From assembly GCF_004378255.1 (NCBI RefSeq), contig NZ_SNQG01000001.1, positions 124,001-188,000 of the forward strand: 64,000 nt of DNA, given 5' to 3'. Below the pieces are notes generated by a model. The model did not search any database and was not told where the DNA came from. It saw only the letters and a list, made by a program, of their open reading frames with translations. Made by a program: the position numbers and the translations under genes. Source of the DNA: Mucilaginibacter phyllosphaerae (GTDB lineage: Bacteria; Bacteroidota; Bacteroidia; Sphingobacteriales; Sphingobacteriaceae). Shown one piece after another: positions 30,406-48,671 of the stretch (the first letter of the stretch is position 1; every line of letters begins with the position of its first letter).

Positions 30406-31467
30406 TTATTTTACTTTTAATTCCTTACCGGCTATATCTTCCCAGCGGTAATAATGGAATGTTCTATCGTCGCTCATCACCACAAATAAGCCATGCTTAA
30501 AGGTATTGTTCAACGGCACATTCACTACGTCAGATCCATCGCTTTGGGTGGCCTGTACATCGGCTATCTTTAATAGCTTATGCTCAAAAGGGTTTTGCTT
30601 GGTACCCTCGCGGCTAAAGATCTGGAAACGGTTTGCGCCCTGGTCTGACACCAGGATATAACCGGTGCTATCCGTTAGCTTGTAGATCGAGATCCCTTCG
30701 TGATCGGCCTTAAAGCCGGTGGTACCAAACATGAATAATTGCTTGTTACCCTTTTCAGGGTCGGCATAGTATTGGCGAACGCCCGTTTGCTCATCAGAAT
30801 AATAGATGTAGCCCAGTTCGTTATCAACCGCTATAGATTCTATCTCCTTTTTACCGCTATATTCGCCAAATTTGCGTACCAGAGTAGCTTTTACATTACC
30901 CTTGCCATCATCACCCAGCAGATACTGCCAGATATAGCCGCCGGTTTTGGGGCCGTTCTTACGGCCAACAATGGCATACATTTTACCATTTTTGGCTGTG
31001 TAGATAGAAATACCCATCAGGTCGCGATACTCCATACCTGTTTCGCCTACAAACATATCAATACCGCCATTATCAACCGGTTTCATATCCGGCAGCGAAT
31101 AAATTCGCAGCTTGCGGCTCATGCGTTCGGTTGTAATTGCAATATCAGTTGGTTTACCGTTCAGCATCAGGCCATAAGCCAGGTCAACATTGTTTGGGCG
31201 CTTCAGTCCCCTTACCACTTTATCAGCAATGATCTTCCCCTGCAGGTCAAACACGTACAAAGCGCCATCGGCATCTTTGTCTGTACCTATTACCAGGCTT
31301 TTGGCCGGGTCAGCCTTATTTATCCAGATGGCAGGGTCATCACTGTCATGCGCCACAGCTTCGGTAATAATTGCCGGTTTAACGGCGTTGGTATCAACCA
31401 CAGGCTTGCAAGACATTAACGACAGTAATGCCAACGGTGCCAAATAATATATATTTTTCCCTATCAT
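30406..31467 (-). CDS. Beta-propeller phytase, lipoprotein
   Basis: Phytases of this type remove phosphate from inositol hexakisphosphate using Ca2+. ATG 31467 was chosen because it gives a lipoprotein signal (MIGKNIYYLAPLALLSLMSC, Cys20) and a 353-residue product; it lies 4 bp after the upstream stop. An ATG at 31536 would add 23 unlikely residues. Family motifs include AHDSDDPAIWINKADPAKSLVIGTDKDADGALYVFDLQGK, MEYRDLMGISIY, KKEIESIAVDNELGYIYYSDEQTGV, FKADHEGISIY and VSDQGANRFQIF, which carry the Ca2+ and phosphate ligands. The gene ends the TonB receptor/beta-helix operon, so a surface phytate-harvesting role is likely. The regulator may be the TPR/LuxR-like protein encoded upstream. Confidence 0.93.
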   Translation of the reverse strand: MIGKNIYYLAPLALLSLMSCKPVVDTNAVKPAIITEAVAHDSDDPAIWINKADPAKSLVIGTDKDADGALYVFDLQGKIIADKVVRGLKRPNNVDLAYGLMLNGKPTDIAITTERMSRKLRIYSLPDMKPVDNGGIDMFVGETGMEYRDLMGISIYTAKNGKMYAIVGRKNGPKTGGYIWQYLLGDDGKGNVKATLVRKFGEYSGKKEIESIAVDNELGYIYYSDEQTGVRQYYADPEKGNKQLFMFGTTGFKADHEGISIYKLTDSTGYILVSDQGANRFQIFSREGTKQNPFEHKLLKIADVQATQSDGSDVVNVPLNNTFKHGLFVVMSDDRTFHYYRWEDIAGKELKVK

Positions 31468-31471
31468 CCAT

Positions 31472-32734
31472 TTACAATTTAGTACCGTAAGCACCAACAT
31501 AAACAGCAGGCTCCGGCGAAACGTAAGTAATACCATTTGCAGTAGTGATACCTGCTTTGTGGTTACGTGTAAAGGTAGTGATGCCTTTACCCAAAGCCGG
31601 TGAGTTACCCTGCAGGTGAAAATCCCAGGCGGTGTTAAAATCTGCGCTTAATACCGGGTTATCCAACGGAAAGTTAACAAATTTAGGATCGTTTTGGCCT
31701 GCAGTTGTACCGCGTACATCATCTGTACCGGCAACAATATCATTTTTACCCACCTGGAACTGATTTACCGTTGTTTGGTCGAAACCATAATACCAGTTGT
31801 TGCTATAAACAGATCTTTTATCTTCCGGCTTCTTTGGATCGCGCTTAACACCAAAACGGGTATTGGCAAACAGGTTGTTATACAAGTCGGCACGCACAGT
31901 AGCCTCTAACCAAACAGAACCACCTTTAGCAGTTGGCCTTCTCCAACCGGTATTAACCATAGTATTGTTATAGGCTATAATATAAGCCTGTGGCGTGCGG
32001 TCGCCACTGTTTGATAATTTAAGGGCATTGGTATTTGTGCTGTAAACCAGGTTGTAAGCCACATCTGCCAAACAGCCCGATTTAAAGTTCATGGCCTCAC
32101 CACCTGTAACACCGGTTGTGTAAAATACATTATTGGCAAAAATGCTTTTACCACCTTCTATATAGGTACAATCTTCCTGAAAGTTACGGATGATGCTGTT
32201 TTGAACAATGAGTTTACCGTTAATGTTAGAGAACCATAGGGCCGGCAGGTTTTCGCCGGCTACTGCTTTATATAAACCCATTTTTACAGATGTTGATGCA
32301 TCTGAAGTGGTTGCACCGCCATACTCTAATATAGTATGGTCAAGCACCAGTTCGGCACAGGTTGGGCCGGCTAAAATACCACCCCATAGTTTACCAAATT
32401 TATTTTCAGTTGTTCTGTAAGCATCACTTACGGTAAACTTTACAGGGTTTTCTATAGTACCTAACGAGTATAGGTTGCCCATTACCACAACTTCGGGCTT
32501 TGCGGTTACATCCATTAAAACGGTTACCCCTTCTTCTATAGTGAGGCTTTGCCCTGCCGGGATGATGATATCTCCCTTGATTTCGTGCACACTGCCTTTT
32601 GACCAGATACCGGATACTTCACCTATTGCCGAACCATTGGTAGGCGTTGTATCCACGCCTTTATTCGCTTTTTCGCAACCTGTAAAAGCTACAGTGCTGA
32701 TAGCTAATACTGCTAAAACTTGTTTTAATTTCAT
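31472..32734 (-). CDS. Beta-helix surface lipoprotein of the phytase operon
   Basis: This 420-residue lipoprotein has its lipobox at TGC (Cys20, MKLKQVLAVLAISTVAFTGC). The body shows short repeating strands typical of a right-handed parallel beta-helix: DIIIPAGQSLTIEEGVTVLMDVTAKPEVVVMGNL, LDHTILEYGG, VQNSIIRNFQED, FANNVFYTTG and IAYNNTMVNTGWRRP. No catalytic residues of pectate lyases or other helix enzymes are obvious. It lies between the TonB receptor (28-bp gap) and the phytase (4-bp gap). It could be the surface binding partner of the receptor, in the place SusD has in sugar loci. That role is inferred from context only. Confidence 0.8.
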   Translation of the reverse strand: MKLKQVLAVLAISTVAFTGCEKANKGVDTTPTNGSAIGEVSGIWSKGSVHEIKGDIIIPAGQSLTIEEGVTVLMDVTAKPEVVVMGNLYSLGTIENPVKFTVSDAYRTTENKFGKLWGGILAGPTCAELVLDHTILEYGGATTSDASTSVKMGLYKAVAGENLPALWFSNINGKLIVQNSIIRNFQEDCTYIEGGKSIFANNVFYTTGVTGGEAMNFKSGCLADVAYNLVYSTNTNALKLSNSGDRTPQAYIIAYNNTMVNTGWRRPTAKGGSVWLEATVRADLYNNLFANTRFGVKRDPKKPEDKRSVYSNNWYYGFDQTTVNQFQVGKNDIVAGTDDVRGTTAGQNDPKFVNFPLDNPVLSADFNTAWDFHLQGNSPALGKGITTFTRNHKAGITTANGITYVSPEPAVYVGAYGTKL

Positions 32735-32762
32735 CTTGATTATGTTTGAATGCTTATATCAG

Positions 32763-35576
32763 TTAATTGAATTTATACCTTACACCTAATAAATAGCTTT
32801 GGCCATAGTAATCGGCACGTATTAAAGTTTGGCCGTTTGAAACCAGCTTTTCTTTAATAGTTTCATTAGCGGGATTGGTACCTTTAATGTACAATTTGGT
32901 TGGCGTGTTTACAATGTTACCGGCCTTTACAAATACGCTTATGTTGTTTTTAAATCGTTTTTCTGCCGATGCATCTACCTGGATGAAACCTTTTTGCCAA
33001 AGATCATTATTCAGAAACTGTGATACGGTATTGATACGCGGACCGGTGTAAGCACCCGCCAGTTGCAGGTCCCAACCTTTTTTGGTGTCTTTATATAATA
33101 AAGATACGTTGGCAATATGCTCTGACTGGCCGTAAAGCGGGCGGCTTTGATTAACCAAAAACGCTTCCTGGTCGCCGGTGGTTTCGTTTATCCTACGCGA
33201 TTTTTTAGGCGTGGTAATGCGTGAATGGGTATAAGTATAGTTGGCTTTGATGCCTATTTTGTTAAAAAATTTAATGTAGTCTATCTCGGCACCATAGTTA
33301 TTGGCTGTACCAAAGTTGCCGGGGGTATAAAAAATATCCTGCGGGCGGGTAGCATCCGACTGGAAGGTAAATTCAATTGGGTCTTTTATCCTTTTATAAA
33401 ATGCACCTACTAATAACTGCTCTGATGCACCCGGGAATAATTCGTAACGCAAATCGTAGTTATCGGCAAGGGCACGTTTCAAGTCGGGGTTACCGCGTTC
33501 CTCATACTCTTCATTCACGATTTTGCTTGGTACAATTTCATAAAAACCCGGGCGGTTCAATGCTTTGTAATACGATGCATGTAACTGGGCTTTATCTGTT
33601 AAGTGATATTTTAAGGTTGCACTTGGCAATACATCTGTATAAACCTGGCTGCCAGTAGGCCTTGTTTCACCCTGTGGGAACAGCATGTTATAACCCTGGT
33701 CGGTATGTTCTACCCTGGCACCGGCAATAATCTCTAATTTATTGGATGTGTATTTAAACATACCATAACCTGCACCGGTTTTTTCGTGTGCATCATAGGT
33801 AAGCGAATTGTTTACACCTCCCTGTTGGTTACTTACCTCCAGATTCAGGTCTGTATAGTTTTGGAAATCAACCCCATATAACGGAGATCTTGTTTCACCT
33901 GTAGTTGAACCCGGAACAGGAACCTGCGGAGCATAAAGATTATATTTGTTAAGATAGCTGCTTCTTTGTTTATCGCGGTATAAACCACCGGCCATAAAAT
34001 CTATCTTGTTATCTCCTGCTGTTTTAACGGTATAGGTAAGGTCTAAATAGCCGGCCTTATCTTCATCGGTATTGCGCTCCCAGCGCCTTTCTATGGGGTT
34101 GGTGTTCACTAAAGATAATTTGGCTATTTGATCACCTGTTTTTAAAGCATTCAGGTTTACGGTTGCATTATCAGGCACATCATTTTTAGCTGTTGAATAC
34201 ACGCCAGACCATTGTACTTTAAATTTGCCGTCAAAAAACTTATGATCGCCATGTAAGGTACTGTTGTAGATCTGCTGCTCGGTTAAACGGCTGCGGGTGC
34301 TGTAAACCAATTCGGCATTGTTTCCATTGCTTTCGCTGTAAACGCTGTTGTTGTAATTTGTAGTAACCTGATCACGCAATTGCTGATTTTTTAAGTTTAC
34401 GTACACATTGTATAGGCTAATTTTGTTATTACTGTTGAAAACATAATCCAGCTTACCGTGTAAGCCTAAACGCTTTTGCTGTTCAGAATACTGGCGATAG
34501 CTTTGGCTGGTAATTTTAGCATAAGCATCGGTACCCACAACATCCGAGTTATAGAAGGTACTGTTGCTACCGCGATAGGTATTTTGGTAACTACCTGCTA
34601 AAACCACGCCCAATTTGCTATCCAAAAAACGCTGACCGATTGACATACTGCCCACCATATTTGGTGCCGGTTTTTTAGAGGTATAATCTAAAGTACCTTT
34701 AGAGAAATCGGCCTGGGTTGCTTTGTATTGACTACCGTTTAAATCATAAGGAGATTTATGATTAATGCCCGAGGCATCGTAGCTGGTAAAGTTACGGTCG
34801 AAGAATAGCTGGCTGTAACCGGTAGCAATGTTGGCGTTGATCTGGAAATGATCGGGCGCATTCTTCATCACCATGTTTACGGCACCACCAATAGCATCAC
34901 CCTCTAAATTTGGGGTAAGTGTTTTATAAACCTCTAACCTGTCTAACAAGTCGGCAGGGAAAAGATCCAGCGGTACATAGCGGTATTTATTATCCGGGCT
35001 GGGGATTTTTACGCCGTTAACCAGCGTGTAGTTATAGCGTTTATCCATACCGCGCAAAATAGCATACTGGCCATCGCCGTTGCTGTTACGCTCGATAGAT
35101 ACGCCGGATACACGCTGCATTACGTTGGCAACTGTCAAATCGGGCGACACCTCAATGGCGCGGCCAGAAACGATGTTCATTACCTGTGTGGCGTTCTGCT
35201 CTATCCGGCGGGCATCACGTTCATTAGAGCCGCTTGCTGTGGCACGTACGGTAACTTCACCCAGATCTTTAGACGCCGATTCCATGTAGATCTTTACGTG
35301 CGGGTTATCCTTACGCAAAACGGTTATAGCCTGCACAACGGTTTTATAGGTAAGGTAGCTAATGCGAATAGTAGCAGGCCCTTCTGCCACGCCTTTTATT
35401 TCGAAAGAACCATCCAGCCCGGTGCTGGTGGCTTTGCCCGTGTTATCTAAAACAACGGTTGCACCTACCAGTGCTTCGCCGGATTTTTTATCGTACACGT
35501 GGCCTTTAATTTTTTGGGCACTGGCTATTGAGGCACAAAATAGCAGGGCTAACAGGATCTGTAAAGTTTTATTCAT
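32763..35576 (-). CDS. TonB-dependent receptor of the phytase operon
   Basis: ATG 35576 gives a clear signal peptide (MNKTLQILLALLFCASIASAQ) and 937 residues; the longer frame from 35639 adds 21 implausible residues. A CarboxypepD_reg-like domain (about 22-110) precedes the plug, with VANVMQRVSGVSIERNSNGDGQYAILRGMDKRYNYTLVNG and LEVYKTLTPNLEGDAIGGAVNMVMKNAP. The large barrel ends in SYLLGVRYKFN. The plug style is that of larger non-SusC receptors, and the operon has no SusD. Operon context (beta-helix lipoprotein, phytase) suggests uptake of phytate, inositol phosphates or another organophosphate. Upstream palindromes at 35715-35799 may control it. Confidence 0.92.
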   Translation of the reverse strand: MNKTLQILLALLFCASIASAQKIKGHVYDKKSGEALVGATVVLDNTGKATSTGLDGSFEIKGVAEGPATIRISYLTYKTVVQAITVLRKDNPHVKIYMESASKDLGEVTVRATASGSNERDARRIEQNATQVMNIVSGRAIEVSPDLTVANVMQRVSGVSIERNSNGDGQYAILRGMDKRYNYTLVNGVKIPSPDNKYRYVPLDLFPADLLDRLEVYKTLTPNLEGDAIGGAVNMVMKNAPDHFQINANIATGYSQLFFDRNFTSYDASGINHKSPYDLNGSQYKATQADFSKGTLDYTSKKPAPNMVGSMSIGQRFLDSKLGVVLAGSYQNTYRGSNSTFYNSDVVGTDAYAKITSQSYRQYSEQQKRLGLHGKLDYVFNSNNKISLYNVYVNLKNQQLRDQVTTNYNNSVYSESNGNNAELVYSTRSRLTEQQIYNSTLHGDHKFFDGKFKVQWSGVYSTAKNDVPDNATVNLNALKTGDQIAKLSLVNTNPIERRWERNTDEDKAGYLDLTYTVKTAGDNKIDFMAGGLYRDKQRSSYLNKYNLYAPQVPVPGSTTGETRSPLYGVDFQNYTDLNLEVSNQQGGVNNSLTYDAHEKTGAGYGMFKYTSNKLEIIAGARVEHTDQGYNMLFPQGETRPTGSQVYTDVLPSATLKYHLTDKAQLHASYYKALNRPGFYEIVPSKIVNEEYEERGNPDLKRALADNYDLRYELFPGASEQLLVGAFYKRIKDPIEFTFQSDATRPQDIFYTPGNFGTANNYGAEIDYIKFFNKIGIKANYTYTHSRITTPKKSRRINETTGDQEAFLVNQSRPLYGQSEHIANVSLLYKDTKKGWDLQLAGAYTGPRINTVSQFLNNDLWQKGFIQVDASAEKRFKNNISVFVKAGNIVNTPTKLYIKGTNPANETIKEKLVSNGQTLIRADYYGQSYLLGVRYKFN

Positions 35577-35844
35577 TGCTGTGTGATAATATTCATTTTT
35601 AAAATGACACTGCAAAGGTGTGTACACATCAGGTAACAAATGAAATTTAAAGGGTTACCAAAAGGCAACACCGTTACAATGCTTGTATATCAAAAAGCAA
35701 CAACAATAAATAAATTATTGATTATCAATAACTTATAATTATAAAAAACCTCCATTACCATTTTATTACCGTTACATTAACTTAATGTTAACACATTAAA
35801 ATTGACGGTGAAGCACATTATTTAAAGGCTGCCTGTAACGGTGG
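35577..35844 (-). promoter_or_regulatory. Upstream region of the phytase operon with strong palindromes
   Basis: This AT-rich region contains TTATTGAT-T-ATCAATAA (35715-35731), a perfect 17-bp palindrome. It also has three alternating 7-mers: ACATTAA (35774-35780), TTAATGT (35782-35788) and ACATTAA (35793-35799). They lie 140-225 bp before the receptor start. They could be operators for the phytase operon or partly terminate the upstream gene. No clean TAnnTTTG was found; CACCTTTG near 35617 is a near match. Confidence 0.45.
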
Positions 35845-37458
35845 CTATAAGGTTTGGATAAACGCGGTAAGGTTATCACCTTGCGGAATATTCAGTTTTT
35901 TGCGCAGCCTGTAACGCGAAACCCGCAGGCTATCGGTAGAGATACCCAGCAGGGTTGCAATATCAGCCGAATCGAGATTAATGCGCAACAGGGCTATCAG
36001 GCGCATATCCGCCGAGGTCAATTCGCTGCTGTATTTTTTGATATTATTAAAAAACTGCTGGTGCACCTGTTCAAAGGCGGTGGTAAATTCCTTCCAGTGC
36101 TGTTCGTGGTTAAAGCTTTCGTTTATCTGCAGTATCAGTTGCTGCATCTGCTTTTTCTGGTCGCGCTTATCTTCTTTCACCATCGCCTGCAGGGTGCTGC
36201 GTAAATGCTCTAAAAACTGATTGTTTTTAATGAGGTTGAGCGTGTGGGCAGATAATTCGCGACTTTTTATTTCCAACTGCTGTTTAAGGCTTTCCTCTTC
36301 CAGCTGCTGGTTTTTCAGCTGCAGCTGCATCAGGTTGTGCTGTGCCTCTTTTTGCCTGGCAAGTGCGTTCTGATCTTTAATTTTAAGGCGCTGCCGGCTA
36401 AATACCACTATACCCAGCGCAATTAAAAGCACAGCAACTACTACAACCGCCACCCCAATTATCCGGTTTATTTTGCGGATGTTATTAAGGCGGCTGATCT
36501 CATCGCTTTTTTTATTCATATCATATAGCACCTGTAAAAAAGCCGTTTGGCTTACCCCATCCTTTGAATATACATCAAGCGAATATTTGCGGCTTAGTTC
36601 GGCGTAGTGATAGGCGCTGTCCATGCGGTTCATTAATTCGTAAGCCCTTCCCAGGTCCTTGCTGCAGGTAGCCAACTGGTAAATGTTACCGGTTTCCTGC
36701 GCCATGGCCATCGCCCTGCGGGTTTGCACTATACTTTGAGCATACCGGCCTGTTTTACGCAAAATATCACCCAAATTATTTACTACTTCTATGGCGCCTA
36801 TCTCGTTATGGTCCTCTTTATACAGTTGTAACGAGCGGTTAAAACTGGTATAAGCCGAATCATACTTAGCCAGATCCTCGTAGATGCTGCCCAGGTTTTC
36901 GTAAATTTTGGCGGCCCCCTGCTTATAGTTTACCTGGGTGTAGTAGTTTAGCGCCAGGCGCTGATAATAAAAGGCACTATCGTACCGGTGGCTTTTCTCG
37001 TACAAGTGGCCTATGTTACCAAATACTTCGGCCTGCCCTTTAAGATTGCGGTTTTGCTTGTATATAATTAAGGCTTTATTATAGCTGGCGCGGGCTTTGT
37101 TAAACTGCTTATTGTAATAATATAGCACCCCCATTTCGCTCATATTAGCGGCCAAAAGGTTGGTATTGTTCAGGCTGGTAAATACTTTATCGGCATGCAG
37201 ATAAAATTCAAGTGCCTGGGCATAATGGCCCTGGTTATAACATATTTTACCCATTTGCTGCAGGCATACCCCTTCTGTCAGGGCATCCTTTTTATCAATA
37301 GCATCCGCATAAAACTTTTTGAGGATAAGCAATGCCGAATCCGGATGTTTTTGGCTAAGTGAACGGATAGCGATTAATTGCTTATCCTGCGCCCTAACAT
37401 TCAAGCTACCAAGCATGATCAGGGTAATAAAAAAAGAGTAAAAGATCTGTTTAAGCAT
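35845..37458 (-). CDS. TPR sensor with transmembrane helix and LuxR-like DNA-binding C-terminus
   Basis: The 537-residue protein starts with a signal peptide (MLKQIFYSFFITLIMLGSLNVRAQ). About seven tetratricopeptide repeats follow (residues 60-310; e.g. GNIGHLYEKSHRYDSAFYYQRLALNYY). Next are one membrane helix (IIGVAVVVVAVLLIALGIVVF, about 330-350), a coiled coil (355-420) and a C-terminal helix-turn-helix, ADMRLIALLRINLDSADIATLLGISTDSLRVSRYRLRKKL. This is a one-component membrane regulator layout known in Bacteroidota: periplasmic TPRs sense, the cytoplasmic HTH acts on DNA. It lies directly upstream of the phytase operon on the same strand, so control of that operon is the simplest guess. 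The ligand is unknown. Confidence 0.88.
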   Translation of the reverse strand: MLKQIFYSFFITLIMLGSLNVRAQDKQLIAIRSLSQKHPDSALLILKKFYADAIDKKDALTEGVCLQQMGKICYNQGHYAQALEFYLHADKVFTSLNNTNLLAANMSEMGVLYYYNKQFNKARASYNKALIIYKQNRNLKGQAEVFGNIGHLYEKSHRYDSAFYYQRLALNYYTQVNYKQGAAKIYENLGSIYEDLAKYDSAYTSFNRSLQLYKEDHNEIGAIEVVNNLGDILRKTGRYAQSIVQTRRAMAMAQETGNIYQLATCSKDLGRAYELMNRMDSAYHYAELSRKYSLDVYSKDGVSQTAFLQVLYDMNKKSDEISRLNNIRKINRIIGVAVVVVAVLLIALGIVVFSRQRLKIKDQNALARQKEAQHNLMQLQLKNQQLEEESLKQQLEIKSRELSAHTLNLIKNNQFLEHLRSTLQAMVKEDKRDQKKQMQQLILQINESFNHEQHWKEFTTAFEQVHQQFFNNIKKYSSELTSADMRLIALLRINLDSADIATLLGISTDSLRVSRYRLRKKLNIPQGDNLTAFIQTL

Positions 37459-37549
37459 TTGTCAGTATCGCGTTAGCAAAAAACATTAACAAATGAACAG
37501 GTTTTATATGAATTTAATGTTAAGTACCTGATGATATATTTAACACACC

Positions 37550-39001: not shown

Positions 39002-39847
39002 TTACAGCCTATTTGCGTTAAGCCTGGGGTTTTGACTGGCATTTACCTGGTAGGTATAGATCTGGTTAAGGTGGTTTACTTCTACCACCCTGTAACCGCG
39101 GTAATCAGTCCCCCAGTCGCCCCCGATATGCGAGTCGAAAAAATGTGGGAATTTGTTGCCCGTATATCGTACCCCATCCAGCAAATGATCGTGCCCGTGG
39201 AAAGCGGCCTTCACGTTCGGGTAAGTATGCAGCAGGTCTACCGTTTCGGAGCAATCCAAAAAGCCTTCGTCCTGCAGCCATTTAACCGGTGGGATGTGCA
39301 GTATCACAAATACGATCTTCTTATCTGCAAACTTATCAAGCGATGCTTTGATAAAGGCATTATCCGGGCATACATATTTGCCTTTTGTATTGGCTGTATT
39401 TGCTAATACAAAAGCAATATCGCCATGTTCTATGGTGTAGTGGTCCTCATAATTAAAAACACTTTTCCATAATGCCGTGTCAGCATAATCGTGGTTACCG
39501 GGTATAGTTTGATAAGGTACGTTCAGCTTATCCAGGTATCTGGTTTTGATCTCGGGCAATAAGTCGGGGCGGTTATGCACCAGGTCCCCGTTAATGATCA
39601 CCATATCCAGATGGTTTTGGGCATGGTCGTCATTCAGCCATTTAACCATATTAGCCGTATTTTCTTCAAAACGGGTACCCGGCTGCCCGTAATGAATATC
39701 AGAAGCCAGCGCGAAGCGCAATTTTAGCTTTTCGGGTTCATTTGTATAGCTATTACCGGCATTAGCAAAACTATTAATAGCAGGAAGCAGAAAAACGCCC
39801 GCTAAACCTGCAGCACTTGTATGGAGAAATTTACGGCGGTTAAACAT
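39002..39847 (-). CDS. Exported calcineurin-like metallophosphoesterase
   Basis: The 281-residue protein starts with a twin-arginine-type signal (NRRKFLHTSAAGLAGVFLLPA), so it may be exported folded. The metallophosphoesterase motifs are complete and in order: Asp50-x-His52 (ASDIHYG), GDLVHNR, GNHDY, VILHIPP and GHDHLLDG. This gives the usual two-metal site. Family members cleave phosphomonoesters, diesters or UDP-sugar-like pyrophosphates; the substrate here is not evident. It is read on the minus strand and separated from the arabinose locus upstream by a terminator at 39866-39896, so it has its own promoter. A phosphate-scavenging role beside the phytase unit is possible. Confidence 0.88.
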   Translation of the reverse strand: MFNRRKFLHTSAAGLAGVFLLPAINSFANAGNSYTNEPEKLKLRFALASDIHYGQPGTRFEENTANMVKWLNDDHAQNHLDMVIINGDLVHNRPDLLPEIKTRYLDKLNVPYQTIPGNHDYADTALWKSVFNYEDHYTIEHGDIAFVLANTANTKGKYVCPDNAFIKASLDKFADKKIVFVILHIPPVKWLQDEGFLDCSETVDLLHTYPNVKAAFHGHDHLLDGVRYTGNKFPHFFDSHIGGDWGTDYRGYRVVEVNHLNQIYTYQVNASQNPRLNANRL

Positions 39848-39950: not shown

Positions 39951-41918
39951 TTAAAGCGTTTTTAATTTTATCACTTTAAAAGTATTGGGCGCAACACTAA
40001 GCTTTACGGCTTTGCCATTAACCACCATTGTGCTGGTAATGGGGCTTATTGCCATCGGTTTATCCAAAGAGTTCATAATGGTTTTATCTGTATTCCCCAA
40101 TGATATCATTGTAGCCCTGCCGCTGATGTTTATCCCGCTGATGTTAAATTCTACCGATTGGCTTTTGTCTGTACTATTTACAAACTTTATGATCAGTTCT
40201 TTCTTGCTTTTATCCAAACAGGCGGTGGCATAACTACCATCCTGGCCGCTAACTGCTTTATCACCATCTAAAAGCGGTATTACATCCGTGCCTTTATTTA
40301 ATGAATATAGTTGCTGCACGTAATAATTCGGCGTACCGTATGATCGCAGATTGTCAAACCAAATCAAATCGGGTGTCCATTGCCAGGCATCCACATGGGC
40401 AAATAAAGGTGCATAGGATGCCATTACAACCACATCTGCATTACGCTCCAGGCCGGTCATAAAAGCAGCTTCGGCTAATGCACATTCCAGCGTATTCTTG
40501 TTATCAGGGCTGCCTGTGGTTTTGCTTTGGGCAGCATACTCGCCTGCAAAGATCTTAGGCCCCTTACGGTCATAATTATCATACCGGTTGGCATGATCTA
40601 AAAACCACTTTGGCGAATTGTAATAATGCTCATCTAAAATATCGGCATTAAGCCCCCTGAAGGTGGTATTAAGCAGATCAAATTCCTTACCCGATGCATA
40701 GGGGCCTACGCTTGATATGATCTGGATATAGGGGTACTTATCTTTAATAGCCTTGGTAAACACCTTCCACCTGTCGATATACTGCTCGCCCCATTGCTCA
40801 TTACCTACCCCCATCATTTTTAAATTAAATGGTTTAGGGTGGCCCAGATCTGCCCGCAATTTACCCCACTTCGTATTTAAGCCGCCATTGGCAAACTCTA
40901 TCAAATCAAGTGCATCCTGCACATAAGGGTCTAACTTATCCAGGGCTACCAACTGGCCGGTATTAAACTGGCAGGCCATACCGCAATTAAGAATAGGTAA
41001 AGGCGATGCGCCAATATCCTCGGCAGTTAAAAAATATTCCATAAAACCCAGCCCAAATGTTTGGTAATAATCAGGCGTAGGGCGATGGGCAAATTCGGTA
41101 TTCCAGCGGTTAATGATATTTTCGCGTTTATCAATATCGCCTATACTTTTCTTCCACTGATAACGGTTAGCCAGATCGCGGCCCTCAACAATACAACCAC
41201 CCGGGAAGCGCAGGAAGCCGGGTTTCAGATCTGCCAGTTTTTGTACCAGATCTGCCCGTAAGCCTGCAGGCCGGTTCTTCCAGGTATGTGCCGGGAATAA
41301 TGATATCATATCCAGGTCTACACTGCCTTTGCCCTTTAACCATACAAATAACGATGCCTTGCTATCAGTAGCGGTAGCCACAAATTGTACATGGTACTTT
41401 TGCCAGTTGGTTGATACCGGCGCCAGTTGCGCCTTACCAATTACCAGGCCCTTTGCGCTATGCAATTCAACCTGTATAGCCGTACTGTTTTTTGACGGTT
41501 TGCGCGCCATTACTGTAAAGTTATAGGTTTCGCCTTTTTTAATACCCATACCCCGGAATCCCTCGTTTGATAACCCAAAGTAACCAGCCGGCGAGGTAAC
41601 ATCCACCGTTATTACATGCGGGTTCTCGGGCCTGTCGTCGGCCCTGTTCACTACCGTTACTTTACCGGCACCACCGTTCTTTTGCTGTTCTTTCCAGCCG
41701 GTTAATGCCGTGTTAAATTCAAAAGAGCGGTTTTTAACCAGTTCGGCATAAACACCACCGTCGGCAGCCATATTAATATCTTCAAAAAATATCCCATACA
41801 TATATGGGGATACCTTTGCCTTTACCTGGTTTGCAGCAATGGTGTAAACTTTTGTTTGCTGGCAAATACCCGCAAAGCAAACAAAGGTTAAGGCAAAAAG
41901 TATAATAACTCTTTTCAT
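39951..41918 (-). CDS. Alpha-L-arabinofuranosidase, GH51
   Basis: The secreted 655-residue enzyme releases terminal arabinofuranose from arabinan, arabinoxylan or arabinogalactan. It has a signal peptide (residues 1-19), the GH51 start YMYGIFFEDINMAADGGVYAELVKNRSFE, and an N-terminal carbohydrate-binding-like insert (about 70-215). The TIM barrel with LRFPGGCIVEGRD follows, then a C-terminal beta domain. The acid/base is Glu374 (GVGNEQWGEQY) and the nucleophile Glu460 (IFAGEYAAQ). It is the last gene of a unit with the symporter and epimerase, 38 bp after the latter, so freed arabinose can be epimerised and imported. The N-terminal insert and signal fit an extracellular or periplasmic enzyme. 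Confidence 0.95.
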   Translation of the reverse strand: MKRVIILFALTFVCFAGICQQTKVYTIAANQVKAKVSPYMYGIFFEDINMAADGGVYAELVKNRSFEFNTALTGWKEQQKNGGAGKVTVVNRADDRPENPHVITVDVTSPAGYFGLSNEGFRGMGIKKGETYNFTVMARKPSKNSTAIQVELHSAKGLVIGKAQLAPVSTNWQKYHVQFVATATDSKASLFVWLKGKGSVDLDMISLFPAHTWKNRPAGLRADLVQKLADLKPGFLRFPGGCIVEGRDLANRYQWKKSIGDIDKRENIINRWNTEFAHRPTPDYYQTFGLGFMEYFLTAEDIGASPLPILNCGMACQFNTGQLVALDKLDPYVQDALDLIEFANGGLNTKWGKLRADLGHPKPFNLKMMGVGNEQWGEQYIDRWKVFTKAIKDKYPYIQIISSVGPYASGKEFDLLNTTFRGLNADILDEHYYNSPKWFLDHANRYDNYDRKGPKIFAGEYAAQSKTTGSPDNKNTLECALAEAAFMTGLERNADVVVMASYAPLFAHVDAWQWTPDLIWFDNLRSYGTPNYYVQQLYSLNKGTDVIPLLDGDKAVSGQDGSYATACLDKSKKELIIKFVNSTDKSQSVEFNISGINISGRATMISLGNTDKTIMNSLDKPMAISPITSTMVVNGKAVKLSVAPNTFKVIKLKTL

Positions 41919-41956
41919 ATCAGATCTTTTTTGGGGTTGATACCGGTTCTGGTAAA

Positions 41957-43150
41957 CTATTTTTCAACGCTGAATTTATAGGTACTTACAGTATGATAAG
42001 CCTGCCCCGGCAGTAATGTAGTGGACGGAAACGCCGGCTGATTTGGAGAATCAGGAAAATGCTGGGTCTCCACACATAAGGCCGAACGATATGCATAGGC
42101 AATACCGCCTTTACCCTTCTTTTCTCCATCCTTAACAAAATCACTATCCTTTATAAAATTACCGCTGTAAAACTGCAGGCCCGGCTCGCCGGTATATATT
42201 TCCATTTTAATGCCGGTTACAGGGCTTGTTAAAGTTGCCACCGGCTCGCCGCCTTTATGCTTGTTCAATACAAAGTTATGGTCATACCCTTTGCCATATT
42301 CCAGCTGTTTATCTTTAATGGCAATATCCCGCCCAATAGTTTTAGCGGTAGTAAAATCAAAAACCCCACCTTTTACCGGTTGTATTTTGCCGGTTGGTAT
42401 CAACGTACTGTCTACAGGCGTGTAGGCATCCGCATTTATTTGTAGCAGGTGATTAGTAATTCCTTCTGTACTTACTGCGCCATTTAAATTAAAATAGGCG
42501 TGGTTGGTAAGGTTAACCACCGTTGCCTTATCGGTTGTGGCGTTATAGGCTATCTCTAACGAATTATCGTCTTTAAGCGTATAAGATACAACTACCTTAA
42601 GATTACCGGGATATCCTTCCTCCCCATCTTTAGACAGGTAGGATAACTCCAGCGTTTGTCCGTTTACTTTGGTAACATCCCAAACCTGTTTAAAAAATCC
42701 TTTGGCCCCGCCATGTAAGGAATTCGGCCCGTCATTTATGCTTAACTGATAAGCCTTACCATCAAGCGTAAATTTGCCTTTGGCAATGCGGTTACCATAT
42801 CTGCCTATTAATGCGCCGAAGAAATTCTCCTTCATTTCGCGGTAGTTCGTTAAATTATCATAGCCTAAAACCACATCTACCGGTTTACCATCTTTATCCG
42901 GTACAAGCAAGCTTACCAGGCGGCCGCCGTAATTGGTAATGGCAGCCTCTGCACCGCTTTTATTTTTCAGCGTATATAGTTTCACCTGCTTATCATCAAC
43001 TTTCCCGTTAAAAGCCGTGCTATCCGGAATGGTATAGGCAACACTATCGGCTGGGGTTGCAGTCTGTTTTTGTTTGGATGCATTATTACAGGCCACGGTC
43101 AATAAAATACCTGCTGCAAATAGGGTGCTGTTAAAAAAAATCTTACGCAT
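41957..43150 (-). CDS. Aldose 1-epimerase lipoprotein (mutarotase)
   Basis: This 397-residue galactose-mutarotase-like protein has a lipoprotein signal (MRKIFFNSTLFAAGILLTVAC, Cys21), so it acts outside the cytoplasm. It interconverts alpha and beta anomers of free aldoses. Family motifs are present: NYGGRLVSLLVPDKDGKPVDVVLGYDNL, ALIGRYGNRIAKGKFTLDG, NDGPNSLHGGAKGFFKQVWDV (general acid His) and NLTNHAYFNLNG. The C-terminal CVETQHFPDSPNQPAFPSTTLLPGQ carries the catalytic Glu region. Encoded between the symporter and GH51 genes, it probably equilibrates arabinose or galactose before uptake. Confidence 0.94.
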   Translation of the reverse strand: MRKIFFNSTLFAAGILLTVACNNASKQKQTATPADSVAYTIPDSTAFNGKVDDKQVKLYTLKNKSGAEAAITNYGGRLVSLLVPDKDGKPVDVVLGYDNLTNYREMKENFFGALIGRYGNRIAKGKFTLDGKAYQLSINDGPNSLHGGAKGFFKQVWDVTKVNGQTLELSYLSKDGEEGYPGNLKVVVSYTLKDDNSLEIAYNATTDKATVVNLTNHAYFNLNGAVSTEGITNHLLQINADAYTPVDSTLIPTGKIQPVKGGVFDFTTAKTIGRDIAIKDKQLEYGKGYDHNFVLNKHKGGEPVATLTSPVTGIKMEIYTGEPGLQFYSGNFIKDSDFVKDGEKKGKGGIAYAYRSALCVETQHFPDSPNQPAFPSTTLLPGQAYHTVSTYKFSVEK

Positions 43151-43223
43151 AATTTTTTTATTTTTTAATAGCGGGCTTATAACCCGTATTTGATGTTTAT
43201 AATTAGATCGCTACTCTCTTCCC

Positions 43224-44930
43224 TTACCAGAATTTTACATAAAGCATAGCAACTAAAAATAAGGTTACTACGATCAACGCAAGGGTTGATTTATCGACCT
43301 TAAACATTTGTTTAGGTATCTCCAGTGCTTTAGGGTTTATTTTAGGGCCGGCAAAACTTACAATAACCATTACCAAAACCGTAAAGAAGAACGATAAGCC
43401 CATACAGATGAGGAATGGAATTTGCCAGGTGCCTTTAGCATCACCGGTTGGGAATGCGGTGTATAACAGTGTTTCGTGGCCGAATATGGCCGGTGCAAAA
43501 TTGTTAAACAATACCGACATGGCGAAGCTGGTTAAGATCCCCACTATGGCAGCCGTACCTGTGGTACGTTTCCAAAAGAAACCTAATATGAATATGGCAA
43601 AGATACCCGGACTAATATAACCGGTGTACTTTTGAATGTAAGTAAAACCTCCCTCTCCGCTGATGCCCAAAAGATCTTTCCAGGTGAGTAAGATAGAGAA
43701 GAACAGCGCCGCCACAATTACCAGTTTGCCTACAACAACCATCTTTTTTTCGCTGGCCTCTTTTGCGATATGCTTTTTATAAATATCAAGCGTAAAAATA
43801 GTACTGATGCTGTTTGCCTTACCCGCAAGCGATGCCACAATAGCGGCAGTAAGCGCTGCTACCGAAAGCCCCTTTAAGCCGGTTGGTAAAAATCCCAACA
43901 CCGCCGAATAAGCGTTATCAGAATTAAAATGCCCGCCGGAATTCATCTCTTGCTGTAAACCGCCATTTTTATAGATAACATAGGCTGCAATGCCAGGCAA
44001 CACCACGATGATGGGCATAGCCAGTTTCATTAAACCGGCAAACAGGATACCTGTACGCGCAGTTTTAAGATCGGCACCCAAGGCTCTTTGCGTAATGTAT
44101 TGGTTACAGCCCCAGTAGTTCAGGTTCACTATCCACTGGCCGGCAAAATACATGGCTATACCCGGCAAAGCCAGGTATTTGTTGATCTCGGCCTGTGGTG
44201 CACCCGGTTTGGGTTTTTCCATTATCATCTTAAAGTGATCCGGCGCGGCCTTAAACATGGCACTTAAACCTTTCAGGGCGCTATCGCCAAAACCAAAATG
44301 CTGGCTTACCAGTGTCAAAGCAATATATGTGGTGGCCAGGCCGCCAACAACTAAAACCAACACTTGTATCACATCGGTATAACCAATAACTTTCATCCCG
44401 CCAAGGGTGATAAATAAGGCAAATATGGCCAGTGCGATAATGATCTCGTGGAGATACCCGCCACCAGCAAGGCTGTTGATAGCCAGTGCGCCCAGGTAAA
44501 GTATTGATGTTAAGTTTACCAGTACATACAGCAGCAGCCAAAAAATGGCCATAATAAAGCTCACCGTTTCGTTATAACGGGTGTGCAAAAACTGCGGCAT
44601 GGTAAATATTTTGTTTTTGAGGAAGATGGGGATAAACCAAACTGCCACGATGATCAACGCAATAGCGGCTATCCACTCGTATGCGGCAACGGCCAAACCA
44701 ACGGCAAAGCCCTGCCCGCTGGTACCAATAAACTGCTCTGCAGAGATATTTGAAGCGATAAGTGATGCGCCGATGGCCCACCAGGTTAAAGAGCCTTCTG
44801 CAAGAAAGAAATCCTTACTATCTGATACCCCTTTATTTTTTTTGCGGCTGTAAACCCAGTACCCGTAGCCGGATACTACGATAAAATAGATCACAAAAAT
44901 GGTGTAATCTATGCCTGTAAACTTGTTCAT
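43224..44930 (-). CDS. Sodium/sugar symporter (SSS family, SGLT type)
   Basis: The 568-residue inner-membrane protein has about 14 transmembrane helices and the SGLT-like start DSKDFFLAEGSLTWWAIGASLIASNISAEQFIGTSGQGFA. It also shows VWFIPIFLKNKIFTMPQFLHTRYN, GGMKVIGYTDVIQVLVLVVGG and LSVAALTAAIVASLAGKANSISTIFTLDIYKK. It imports a monosaccharide with Na+. Its place between araA and the epimerase/arabinofuranosidase genes makes L-arabinose the likely substrate, though galactose is possible. A strong terminator sits between araA and this gene, so separate regulation from araBDA is likely. Confidence 0.92.
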   Translation of the reverse strand: MNKFTGIDYTIFVIYFIVVSGYGYWVYSRKKNKGVSDSKDFFLAEGSLTWWAIGASLIASNISAEQFIGTSGQGFAVGLAVAAYEWIAAIALIIVAVWFIPIFLKNKIFTMPQFLHTRYNETVSFIMAIFWLLLYVLVNLTSILYLGALAINSLAGGGYLHEIIIALAIFALFITLGGMKVIGYTDVIQVLVLVVGGLATTYIALTLVSQHFGFGDSALKGLSAMFKAAPDHFKMIMEKPKPGAPQAEINKYLALPGIAMYFAGQWIVNLNYWGCNQYITQRALGADLKTARTGILFAGLMKLAMPIIVVLPGIAAYVIYKNGGLQQEMNSGGHFNSDNAYSAVLGFLPTGLKGLSVAALTAAIVASLAGKANSISTIFTLDIYKKHIAKEASEKKMVVVGKLVIVAALFFSILLTWKDLLGISGEGGFTYIQKYTGYISPGIFAIFILGFFWKRTTGTAAIVGILTSFAMSVLFNNFAPAIFGHETLLYTAFPTGDAKGTWQIPFLICMGLSFFFTVLVMVIVSFAGPKINPKALEIPKQMFKVDKSTLALIVVTLFLVAMLYVKFW

Positions 44931-44960
44931 ATTTTAATTTAATTAGGTTTAATTGGTAAA

Positions 44961-44999
44961 CAAAACAGGCAGCCATCTCCCATCCGGCTGCCTGTTTTG
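44961..44999 (-). terminator. Terminator between araA and the symporter gene
   Basis: CAAAACAGGCAGCC (44961-44974) and GGCTGCCTGTTTTG (44986-44999) form a perfect 14-bp stem with an 11-base loop. On the minus strand the stem ends in TTTTG and TTT follows. It lies 8 bp after the araA stop. Confidence 0.8.
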
Positions 45000-45007
45000 A
45001 TGAATTT

Positions 45008-46498
45008 CTATTTATACGCTATCTCGTTCCAACGCAATTCATTTCTAAACTGCTCTATCGTAGTGCCTTTGCCTATACGTAAAAATTCGATTCCTGCCAT
45101 ATCTGCAAAATCCTGCAAATGCTCGGCAGTTAAATTTTGGCTGTAAGCGGTATGGTGCGCGCCACCTGCATAGATCCAGGCTGCACAGCCGGTTTTCATA
45201 TCGGGCAGTGGTTTCCAAAGCACCCTTGCCACCGGCAATTTAGGTAAATCATTTTGTGGTTCAACAGCTTCTACTTCATTTATTAATAAGCGGAAACGGT
45301 TACCCATATCTATTAACGATGCATTCAAGGCATTACCCGATGCTACATTGAACACTAAACGGGCCGGATCAGCTTTGCCGCCAATACCTAACGGATGCAC
45401 CTCTAATGCGGCTTTACCATTAGCCAAAGATCCATCAATCTCCAGCATGTGCGATCCTAACACCAGTTGGTTATCAGGGTCAAAATGGTAAGTATAATCT
45501 TCCATAAAGGCGTTGCCGCCGGCAAGGCCGCTGCCCATTACTTTAAAGGCACGTACCAGCGCGGTTGTCTTCCAATCGCCCTCGCCGGCAAAACCGTAGC
45601 CATCGGCCATCAGGCGCTGTGCGGCTATACCAGGCAGTTGTACCATTCCGTGCAGGTCTTCAAACGTATCTGTAAAACCTTTAAAGCCACCATCCTGTAA
45701 AAACTTACGCAGGCCAAGCTCAATTTTAGCAGCCTCGAAAACAGATGCATGTTTATCCCCGCCGCTTTTAAGTGAGGCATCCATCGTATAAGTATTTTCA
45801 TACTCATCGGTCAAAGTTTTTACTTCTGCTTCGCTAATGCTGTCTATTACCGCAACCAGGTCACCAATGCCATAAGTATTTACCGAAAAGCCAAATTTGG
45901 TTTCGGCTTCTACCTTATCACCATCTGTTACGGCTACAAAGCGCATATTATCGCCAAAGCGGGCAAATTTGGCACCCTGCCAATCATACCAGCCAGCGGC
46001 GGCACGTGCCCAGCTTTCTACCTGGCCCAATAATTCAGGGTCTTGCCAGTGGCCAACCACCACCTTGCGGTTTTTGCGCAGGCGCGATACCATAAACCCA
46101 AACTCACGGTCGCCATGCGCACTTTGGTTCAGGTTCATAAAATCCATATCTATCGAACTCCACGGAATATCGCGGTTATACTGGGTATGCAGGTGCAGCA
46201 TAGGTTTCTGCAGGATATTCAATCCCCTGATCCACATTTTGGCTGGAGAAAAGGTATGCATCCAGGTGATGATACCGATACAGTTTGGCGCCACGTTAGC
46301 CTCCTGCAGGGTATTGTAAATTTCGTCGGTTGATTTTACTACCGGCTTATATACCACACGCACCGGGATATTACCCGCGTTGTTTAGTCCATCTGCAATG
46401 TGTTGTGAGTGTATAGCTACCTGCTTAAGGGTTTCCTCGCCATATAAGTTTTGACTGCCGGTAATAAACCATACTTCAAACGTTTTTAAATCTATCAT
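45008..46498 (-). CDS. araA: L-arabinose isomerase
   Basis: AraA converts L-arabinose to L-ribulose in the cytoplasm, using Mn2+. The 496-residue length equals the family norm. It starts [33 protein letters not shown], and the characteristic [17 protein letters not shown] and [30 protein letters not shown] are present. Metal-site residues fall within [38 protein letters not shown] and GGAHHTAYS. It is transcribed after the GH27 gene in the araB-araD-GH27-araA unit and is followed by a terminator. All expected residues are in place. Confidence 0.98.
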
Positions 46499-46541
46499 TA
46501 TAATATTTAGTGATTGAGTGAATTATTGATTTAGTGATTTT

Positions 46542-47906
46542 TTATTGTGGTGATAGTTTCAACAAGGCCGATCCGTGCAGATTAATATCCTCGCTGTAGC
46601 CTTTTTTAAACCGGCCGGCGTCCTGCTTTTTCCATAGGTTGCGCACTTTCACGTTGCCTTTTAGGCCAAGTGCAGCAAAATCTACCGATACCTTTTGGTT
46701 GCTATCGCCGATATTGAACAGGGCTACATACACATCTTTGCTTCCCTGCACATGCGAGTACCACACCATTGCACCATTCTTTTTATAAAGCTGCTTGGGG
46801 TTTTCTCCCTGCTGGTTTACGGCAAGCACTTCTGCATTGGTAAATAGCTTCAATTCCAGTTCGCGGTTCTCGGGCAGGTTGCCACCTATCATTAGGGGCG
46901 AACGGTAAATGCTCCAAAAGGTCATGTGGGTGTATTGCTCATCTTCGGTAAAGCGGCTGTAGCGCTCCTGGCCAACCGGGCCGCGTTTAGATAGCTTCCC
47001 TATTTGTATCATATCACAATCAGGCCAGTGGCCGGGGCCACCCACGCCCTCCCAGTTTTTAGCGTAATCAAACATGTGCAGTATCTCTTTCCAGTTATCC
47101 CAAAAATCATCGGCCATGCGCCACATGTTGGCATATTTGGTAGCGTGTGCAGCCTGTGCAACGGGTGTTTCGCCGGGCGACAGGCTCAGTACCATCGGCC
47201 TGCCGCAATTGGCTATAGCCTTTTTATAACCTTCTACTTCAGCAGCGCTGTATGGGCGCGACAGATCATCAACTTTAATGAAATCAACTCCCCAAGAGGC
47301 ATACAGTTCCAATATTGAATTTAAGTATTCCTGTGCGCCGGGTTTGCTCATGTTTAAACCATACATGTGGTTCATCCAGGGGCATTTGGAGTTTGTATCG
47401 GCAACCATATCGGCAGTAATGCCATTAGTACCTTTAACCGGCGACTTTGACCATACCGCCTGCCTTGGGATGCCGCGCATTACGTGGATACCAAACTTTA
47501 AGCCTTTGCTATGCACATAATCTGACAGTGGTTTAAAACCATCCCCCTTAAAAGCAGATGGAAATTTGTTGGGCTGTGGCAATAGCCTTCCCCATTTATC
47601 CATCGTAAGCCAGGGCACGTAAGAGCCATCTCCCAGCCTTAGCTGAAACGGGTTACCAATGTTGCTGCCCGGCGGATTATCGTACGACCATAAGAAGTCA
47701 ACCACGATATACTCCCATCCATAGGTCTTTAGGTTTTGGGCCATGTAATCGGTATTGGCCTTCACCTCATCCTCGTGCACGGCGGAACCAAAGCAGTTAT
47801 AGCTATTCCAGCCCATAGGCGGTTTTGCTGCAATTAAGCTTTGTGCCGATGTATTCTGGCTAAACCATGCGCAGGCTATCAATATAAACAGGTAACGAAA
47901 CTTCAT
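46542..47906 (-). CDS. GH27 alpha-galactosidase / beta-L-arabinopyranosidase
   Basis: This 454-residue exported enzyme has a signal peptide at residues 1-21 (ending NTSAQ). The GH27 barrel begins AKPPMGWNSYNCFGSAVHEDEV. The nucleophile is Asp213 (VDFIKVDDLS), and the acid/base lies in RMADDFWDNW (Asp266/267). A C-terminal beta-sandwich ends LHGSALLKLSPQ. GH27 enzymes remove terminal alpha-D-galactose, and some act on beta-L-arabinopyranose, which has the same ring configuration. Being encoded between araD and araA, inside the arabinose catabolic genes, the arabinopyranosidase activity is the better guess for this protein. Sequence alone does not decide. Confidence 0.9.
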   Translation of the reverse strand: MKFRYLFILIACAWFSQNTSAQSLIAAKPPMGWNSYNCFGSAVHEDEVKANTDYMAQNLKTYGWEYIVVDFLWSYDNPPGSNIGNPFQLRLGDGSYVPWLTMDKWGRLLPQPNKFPSAFKGDGFKPLSDYVHSKGLKFGIHVMRGIPRQAVWSKSPVKGTNGITADMVADTNSKCPWMNHMYGLNMSKPGAQEYLNSILELYASWGVDFIKVDDLSRPYSAAEVEGYKKAIANCGRPMVLSLSPGETPVAQAAHATKYANMWRMADDFWDNWKEILHMFDYAKNWEGVGGPGHWPDCDMIQIGKLSKRGPVGQERYSRFTEDEQYTHMTFWSIYRSPLMIGGNLPENRELELKLFTNAEVLAVNQQGENPKQLYKKNGAMVWYSHVQGSKDVYVALFNIGDSNQKVSVDFAALGLKGNVKVRNLWKKQDAGRFKKGYSEDINLHGSALLKLSPQ

Positions 47907-47968
47907 ATATGATTTAAATTCTAAAACTTTAAACGTTATTAAATTTACTACTCACTATTCACCATTCT

Positions 47969-48670: not shown

Positions 48671-48671
48671 T

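What the first reader, a model, noticed from the sequence alone, without database searches (positions are those of the whole stretch)
30406..35576. TonB receptor, beta-helix lipoprotein and phytase form a phytate-harvesting operon without SusD
Three genes with 4- and 28-bp gaps encode a receptor, a surface-type beta-helix lipoprotein and a beta-propeller phytase. The beta-helix lipoprotein occupies the SusD-like place and may be a new class of inositol-phosphate-binding partner.
Basis: partly seen in the sequence, partly recalled or inferred. Interest (0 to 1): 0.55.

Follow-up and report, generated by a model that had tools for sequence, protein, structure and literature searches.

The report
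Phosphate-regulated phytate uptake operon
A soil bacterium related to Mucilaginibacter carries what looks like a phosphate-starvation operon that brings plant phytate through its outer membrane with a receptor plus a spiral-shaped surface lipoprotein, and the same pair is found beside two unrelated kinds of phytate-degrading enzyme in other bacteria.

Summary
On the minus strand lie a TonB-dependent receptor (35576-32763), a beta-helix lipoprotein "BHX" (32734-31472) and a beta-propeller phytase lipoprotein (31467-30406), with gaps of 28 and 4 bp and no SusD.

Receptor and BHX form an obligate pair: 72 of 72 receptors and 72 of 73 BHX in 201 family genomes. Named relatives keep receptor-BHX-phytase in 79 of 80 loci. 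BHX paralogs keep the pair but swap the enzyme, most often for a MINPP-type phytase (16 of 19 MINPP genes lie beside the pair). No genome has both phytase types. An 18-bp direct repeat upstream recurs at Pit/PhoU-like promoters (30 of 30) and PhoB-like promoters (29 of 30).

BHX is not a wholly new class. It is a separate branch of the phosphate-starvation beta-helix lipoproteins next to TonB receptors (FI/FII of Flavobacterium; ElpS/Cc0171 of Caulobacter, by literature).

Most likely this is PhoB-controlled outer-membrane uptake of inositol phosphates, with BHX as the receptor's surface partner. Binding and transport are untested.

The parts
32763..35576 (-). TonB-dependent receptor (TBDT-A), 937 aa, not SusC-type
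   Evidence: Pfam; TIGR01782 at 300.9 bits (cut-off 310), no SusC model; adjacent to BHX in 72 of 72 homologs
31472..32734 (-). BHX: right-handed beta-helix lipoprotein, proposed surface partner of the receptor
   Evidence: lipobox Cys20; model pLDDT 84.2, pTM 0.85; beta-helix matches up to Z 22.5; invariant D188, N216, K218, K239, R265 in 28 family members
30406..31467 (-). beta-propeller phytase, lipoprotein; likely start is the ATG at 31467, not the ORF start 31536
   Evidence: PF02333 E=5.5e-45; aligns to Bacillus phytase 1cvm, E=5.1e-30; catalytic-site residues (identities recalled) invariant in 12 homologs
35845..37458 (-). TPR protein with C-terminal LuxR-like HTH (weak), probable operon regulator, upstream in 76 of 80 named loci
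   Evidence: TPR_12 E=6.6e-24; GerE E=0.023
35774..35791 (-). Pho-box-like direct repeat TTAACAT-N4-TTAATGT upstream of the receptor
   Evidence: score at least 13 of 14 in 60 of 80 named loci against 1.3% in Markov controls
37506..37523 (-). Pho-box-like repeat (1 mismatch) 65 bp upstream of the TPR gene
   Evidence: score at least 13 of 14 in 56 of 75 named loci against 0.4% in controls

Best explanation
The operon is a phosphate-starvation (PhoB-type) outer-membrane uptake system for phytate and other inositol phosphates. The TonB receptor and the beta-helix lipoprotein form a two-part transporter: the lipoprotein, on the cell surface, captures or hands over the inositol phosphate, and the receptor imports it. 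The phytase, an outer-membrane lipoprotein proposed to face the periplasm, removes phosphates, which then enter through a Pit-type carrier. Shown here: gene content, obligate pairing, enzyme swapping, a shared regulatory repeat, predicted fold and conserved phytase site. Inferred: surface exposure, complex formation, ligand, direction of transport, and which protein binds the repeat.
For: 1) Receptor-BHX pairing: 72 of 72 receptors, 72 of 73 BHX. A further 61 of 61 BHX genes chosen from paralog and phylum-wide loci have a TBDT-A directly upstream (these loci were picked because they hold BHX, and part of them overlaps the 201-genome survey). 2) Two non-homologous phytase types use the pair: 30 of 82 beta-propeller phytases are directly beside BHX (29 intact, 1 BHX remnant) and 16 of 19 MINPP genes lie within 6 kb. 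MINPP identity: PDB 4fdt, E=2.6e-43. Both enzyme types occur together in 0 of 201 genomes (7.3 expected, P=4.5e-5; within the genus 5.3 expected, P=7.6e-5, not corrected for phylogeny). 3) A phosphatase homolog lies within 3 genes of BHX in 39 of 61 loci, against 0 of 22 and 0 of 111 in two controls. 4) The repeat TTAACAT-N4-TTAAYRT lies about 52 bp upstream of the PhoU_div gene in 30 of 30 genomes, about 73 bp upstream of a PhoB-like regulator in 29 of 30 (score 12 or more), and upstream of receptor and TPR gene here and in relatives. 5) 79 of 80 named loci keep the order.
Against: 52 of 82 phytase genes lack BHX beside them; in the fetched loci most use another receptor, TBDT-B (48 of 78), so BHX is not required for phytate use. 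27 of 73 BHX genes are beside neither phytase type. Two loci keep receptor and BHX with no phytase (L092, L093), and so does F. algicola L327. The regulatory pattern is not enriched over the whole genome (35 hits against 28 in the reversed control, at most 1 mismatch), and it is weak in the Flavobacterium PhoB loci. No binding, transport or expression data. BHX shares its fold with polysaccharide lyases, so it could be an enzyme.
Confidence: 0.6

Rival explanations
1. The receptor-BHX pair is a general organic-phosphate importer; phytase is only one of several interchangeable periplasmic phosphatases, and the ligand is a phosphorylated compound other than phytate in many genomes.
For: Pair loci also hold calcineurin-like phosphoesterases, acid-phosphatase-like enzymes, a PhoA-type alkaline phosphatase and short histidine phosphatases. 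27 of 73 are beside neither phytase type. The related FI/FII lipoproteins lie in phosphate clusters where no phytase is named (PMC8115612, section 16 read).
Against: The two most frequent partner enzymes in the family survey are both inositol-phosphate phosphatases (46 of 73 BHX genes), of unrelated families, and mutually exclusive.
Confidence: 0.22
2. BHX is an enzyme or glycan-binding protein (pectate-lyase-like) that frees phytate or phosphate bound to plant cell walls, as suggested in print for FI/FII.
For: The predicted fold matches PL6, Pel9A, AlgG and polygalacturonases at Z about 20-22. Invariant D188, K218, K239 and R265 could form an active site. Suggested for FI/FII in PMC8115612.
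Against: No carbohydrate enzyme is in the operon. Partner genes are phosphatases. Strict one-to-one pairing with the receptor fits a transporter subunit better. A shared fold shows no function.
Confidence: 0.1
3. The phytase acts at the cell surface and the receptor imports a product (lower inositol phosphate or inositol) or a released metal, not phytate itself.
For: The phytase has a lipobox (sequence). TonB receptors commonly import metals (recalled).
Against: Acidic residues after the lipobox cysteine, a usual surface signal in Bacteroidota (recalled), are fewer in phytases (mean 0.30) than in BHX (1.36), by a crude text match. In the MINPP set the same match found a lipobox in only 2 of 17.
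Confidence: 0.15

Closest known systems
FI/FII phosphate-starvation lipoproteins with TonB receptors (PUSIII, PUSIV) of Flavobacterium johnsoniae (Fjoh_3856/3857, Fjoh_0546/0545; PMC8115612)
   Same: beta-helix/pectin-lyase-fold lipoprotein beside a TonB receptor, phosphate-responsive; the PhoB-adjacent Flavobacterium lipoproteins I took as FII type are homologous to BHX (hhalign 99.5%, E=8e-23)
   Different: A separate branch: only about 276 mostly N-terminal columns align, and the receptor is about 21-29% identical. BHX is tied to phytases and phosphatases, whereas 0 of 22 such loci had one of them
ElpS and Cc0171 of Caulobacter crescentus (PMC2996285)
   Same: Phosphate-starvation lipoprotein next to a TonB receptor; the authors proposed functional interaction from co-occurrence (passages read). 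The window receptor matches TIGR01782 TonB-Xanth-Caul just below cut-off
   Different: ElpS lies beside type II secretion genes and is released from the cell; the word phytase does not occur in that text. Sequence not compared directly
Phytase with TonB receptor Fjoh_1367/1368 (PMC8115612)
   Same: beta-propeller phytase co-located with a low-phosphate-induced TonB receptor
   Different: No lipoprotein partner listed; the TBDT-B arrangement of 48 of 78 loci here may correspond, but this was not compared directly
SusCD / PusCD
   Same: Receptor plus surface lipoprotein encoded as a pair with degrading enzymes
   Different: Receptor is not SusC-type; lipoprotein is a beta-helix with no SusD match
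MINPP (BtMinpp, PDB 4fdt)
   Same: Close homolog is the partner enzyme of BHX paralogs
   Different: Not present in this genome

Membership tests
SusCD transporter | SusC-type receptor model | tested here: not met
   no SusC model at E up to 0.1; best TIGR01782
SusCD transporter | SusD-family lipoprotein | tested here: not met
   no SusD family among the proteins scanned; BHX predicted as beta-helix
SusCD transporter | obligate receptor-lipoprotein gene pair (works like) | tested here: met
   72 of 72 and 72 of 73
beta-propeller phytase | PF02333 above cut-off | tested here: met
   154.4 bits, cut-off 21
beta-propeller phytase | calcium and phosphate site residues (identities recalled) | tested here: met
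   K64, R115, Y156, K170, E210, E226, D255, E257, Q276, D310 invariant in 12 homologs
beta-propeller phytase | phytate hydrolysis | not testable with these tools
   needs assay
ElpS/FI/FII lipoproteins | sequence homology | tested here: inconclusive
   homologous to PhoB-adjacent Flavobacterium lipoproteins over the N-terminal part; ElpS and Fjoh sequences themselves not in hand
ElpS/FI/FII lipoproteins | TonB receptor next to it | tested here: met
ElpS/FI/FII lipoproteins | induced by phosphate starvation | not testable with these tools
   only the promoter repeat is shown
Pho regulon | direct repeat of period 11 upstream, shared with other phosphate genes | tested here: met
   binding by PhoB not tested

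The most novel reading that the evidence does not exclude
TBDT-A plus BHX is a phylum-wide, SusD-independent two-part outer-membrane importer dedicated to inositol polyphosphates, with a beta-helix cap whose stacked invariant Lys/Arg ladder (K218, K239, R265) grips phosphates, and it recruits either of two unrelated phytases.
Probability: 0.4. Interest if true: 0.75.

Novelty: new variant of a known kind. Interest (0 to 1): 0.57.

Why it matters
Phytate is a major organic phosphorus store in soil (recalled), and how Gram-negative soil bacteria get it through the outer membrane is, to my knowledge, not established. Two unrelated phytases sharing one receptor-lipoprotein pair gives a concrete, testable candidate for such a transporter. 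It also suggests a substrate class for the poorly understood ElpS/FI/FII lipoproteins and supplies a candidate Pho box for Sphingobacteriaceae.

Tried and rejected
SusD membership of BHX: rejected (no Pfam or NCBIfam match, beta-helix fold). A solved relative of BHX or of the receptor by sequence: none at the thresholds used. An uncharacterised recurrent lipoprotein ("LIP9", 19 of 61 BHX loci) as a second phytase-like propeller: only 1 of 14 members reached PF13449, at E=0.042, and the profile comparison with the phytase was weak, so left open. Whole-genome enrichment of the regulatory repeat: not seen (35 against 28 reversed), so I relied on position and conservation. PstB in this genome: not found at E up to 1e-60. 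BHX on plasmids: no match with one paralog. ElpS could not be compared directly because I found no route to its sequence. Literature: ten searches; none listed a paper describing a phytate-binding beta-helix partner, but the library lacks most subscription papers. Papers seen: PMC8115612 (passages and section 16), PMC2996285 (passages), PMC3547664 (passages; no Pho-box sequence in those passages), others as search listings only.

In one search I used 73 BHX rows (down to E=3.5e-17) and dropped the weaker rows and the second pieces of the same genes; all 72 receptor rows, 19 MINPP rows and 82 phytase rows were used. One search scored only 4 candidates per genome, so more distant receptors may be missing. 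Of 82 phytase places 78 were fetched (G097, G039, G198 and G036 were not). The lipobox text match sometimes picked a wrong cysteine, including for the window's own phytase; the first table was spoiled by a naming slip and redone. The BHX alignment given to the folding job held only close orthologs (70-88%), so the stretch of about 260-370 (pLDDT 55-95 by block) is less certain.
Full report
WHAT IS THERE. The three genes of the finding exist on the minus strand with the gaps stated. The receptor (35576-32763) has the plug, barrel and carboxypeptidase-like N-terminal domains of a TonB-dependent receptor and matches NCBIfam TIGR01782 just below its cut-off, but no SusC model. The phytase most likely starts at the ATG at 31467 and has a lipobox; it is a PF02333 member and aligns with the Bacillus phytase structures (1cvm, E=5.1e-30), keeping the residues I recall as the calcium and phosphate site. 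The middle protein, called BHX here, has no confident family and no sequence relative in the PDB. Its model (pLDDT 84.2, pTM 0.85, 38-sequence alignment of close orthologs) is a right-handed parallel beta-helix; the best structural matches are alginate lyase, AlgG and Pel9A at Z about 22.

CO-CONSERVATION. In 201 genomes of the same family the receptor type (E up to 1e-100) occurs 72 times and has BHX on the same strand within 1 kb 72 times. BHX occurs 73 times and has the receptor 72 times; the exception is a truncated remnant beside a phytase. Among 80 named loci found with the window's BHX (Mucilaginibacter, Pedobacter, Sphingobacterium, Flavobacterium), 79 have receptor-BHX-phytase and 76 also the TPR gene upstream. 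The exception, F. algicola, has receptor and BHX without phytase.

ENZYME SWAPPING. Paralogous pairs (BHX about 30% identical, receptor 35-46%) lie beside other enzymes. The commonest is a 445-aa histidine phosphatase whose best PDB match is BtMinpp, a multiple inositol polyphosphate phosphatase (4fdt, E=2.6e-43). Searched in the other direction, 16 of 19 MINPP genes in the 201 genomes lie within 6 kb of the pair. Beta-propeller phytase (82 genomes) and MINPP (18 genomes) never occur in the same genome, where 7.3 are expected (P=4.5e-5); within the genus 0 against 5.3 expected (P=7.6e-5). These P values ignore shared ancestry. Profile search over 395 genomes of the phylum found full-length BHX in many other families. 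In 61 BHX genes examined outside the main ortholog group, all 61 have the receptor upstream, 39 have a phosphatase homolog within three genes, and 50 a phosphatase or an uncharacterised lipoprotein LIP9. Controls gave 0 of 22 (FII-type loci) and 0 of 111 (distant genes).

NOT ALL PHYTASES USE IT. Of 78 phytase loci fetched (of 82), 29 have this receptor with BHX, 48 have a different receptor (TBDT-B, about 25% identical) without BHX, and 1 has none. So a receptor is nearly universal beside the phytase in this family, and BHX marks one of two solutions.

PHOSPHATE CONTROL. A direct repeat of period 11, TTAACAT-N4-TTAAYRT, lies at 35774-35791, and a one-mismatch copy at 37506-37523 before the TPR gene. 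Only four exact copies exist in the genome. One is 52 bp upstream of a PhoU_div (Pit-associated) gene. One-mismatch copies precede an OmpR/PhoB-type response regulator, a type I phosphodiesterase and the genome's FII-type receptor. The pattern is not enriched overall (35 against 28 reversed). However, the copy before the PhoU_div gene is conserved at about -52 in 30 of 30 genomes examined (24 with a perfect score; controls 0.2% at 13 or more), and the copy before the regulator at about -73 in 29 of 30 (score 12 or more; controls 6.9%) (30 of the matches of each search were read). In the named loci the receptor promoter scores 13 or more in 60 of 80 (controls 1.3%) and the TPR promoter in 56 of 75 (controls 0.4%). 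TBDT-B phytase operons score 13 or more in 14 of 44 (controls 0.9%). In Flavobacterium PhoB loci the signal is weak. I read this as a family-level Pho box; binding by PhoB is inferred.

RELATION TO KNOWN SYSTEMS. F. johnsoniae induces, under phosphate depletion, lipoproteins FI and FII next to TonB receptors, and separately a phytase with a TonB receptor; FI-FIII resemble Caulobacter ElpS (PMC8115612, passages and section 16). ElpS lies next to receptor Cc0171, and its authors proposed interaction from co-occurrence (PMC2996285, passages). In my loci, Flavobacterium-genus lipoproteins beside a PhoB-like gene and a receptor fit the FII description, and their profile aligns with BHX at 99.5% probability, E=8e-23, over about 276 mostly N-terminal columns. 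BHX is therefore a distinct branch of a known kind, not a new class. The link of this branch to inositol-phosphate enzymes appears in none of the papers that I read, and no listed title or abstract described it.

MECHANISM. I favour uptake of intact inositol phosphates through the receptor with BHX as surface partner, followed by periplasmic dephosphorylation. BHX proteins carry more acidic residues after the lipobox cysteine than the phytases (1.36 against 0.30, crude match), which would fit a surface position for BHX and a periplasmic one for phytase. K218, K239, R265 and D188 are invariant in 28 diverged BHX proteins. By the strand pattern of the model, K218 and K239 would lie on stacked coils of one sheet, a candidate anion site; this is inference without coordinates.

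Noticed in passing
L091 6738-7733 and 18 further BHX loci: Recurrent uncharacterised lipoprotein LIP9 (about 330 aa, many invariant acidic residues) beside the receptor-BHX pair across the phylum; no confident Pfam or PDB match.
   Followed up: partly
L103 5097-6128, L111, L118, L127, L131, L132: A very acidic lipoprotein lies between TBDT-B and phytase in 6 of 78 phytase loci; one member had no Pfam match.
   Followed up: partly
window 39002-39847: Calcineurin-like metallophosphoesterase with possible Tat signal 1.5 kb beyond the TPR gene; link to the operon unknown.
   Followed up: no
window 11409-13445: Protein that looks like polyphosphate kinase by eye; not tested.
   Followed up: no
G000:C10, L161 3819-8151: The same genome has an FII-type receptor plus 482-aa lipoprotein with a Pho-box-like repeat 97 bp upstream.
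   Followed up: partly
G174 C1:1737585-1738833 (L090): Phytase beside a truncated BHX remnant whose match contains a stop, apparently a decaying copy of the operon.
   Followed up: no
window 39951-50375: Looks by eye like an L-arabinose utilisation cluster (arabinofuranosidase, transporter, isomerase, ribulokinase); not tested.
   Followed up: no
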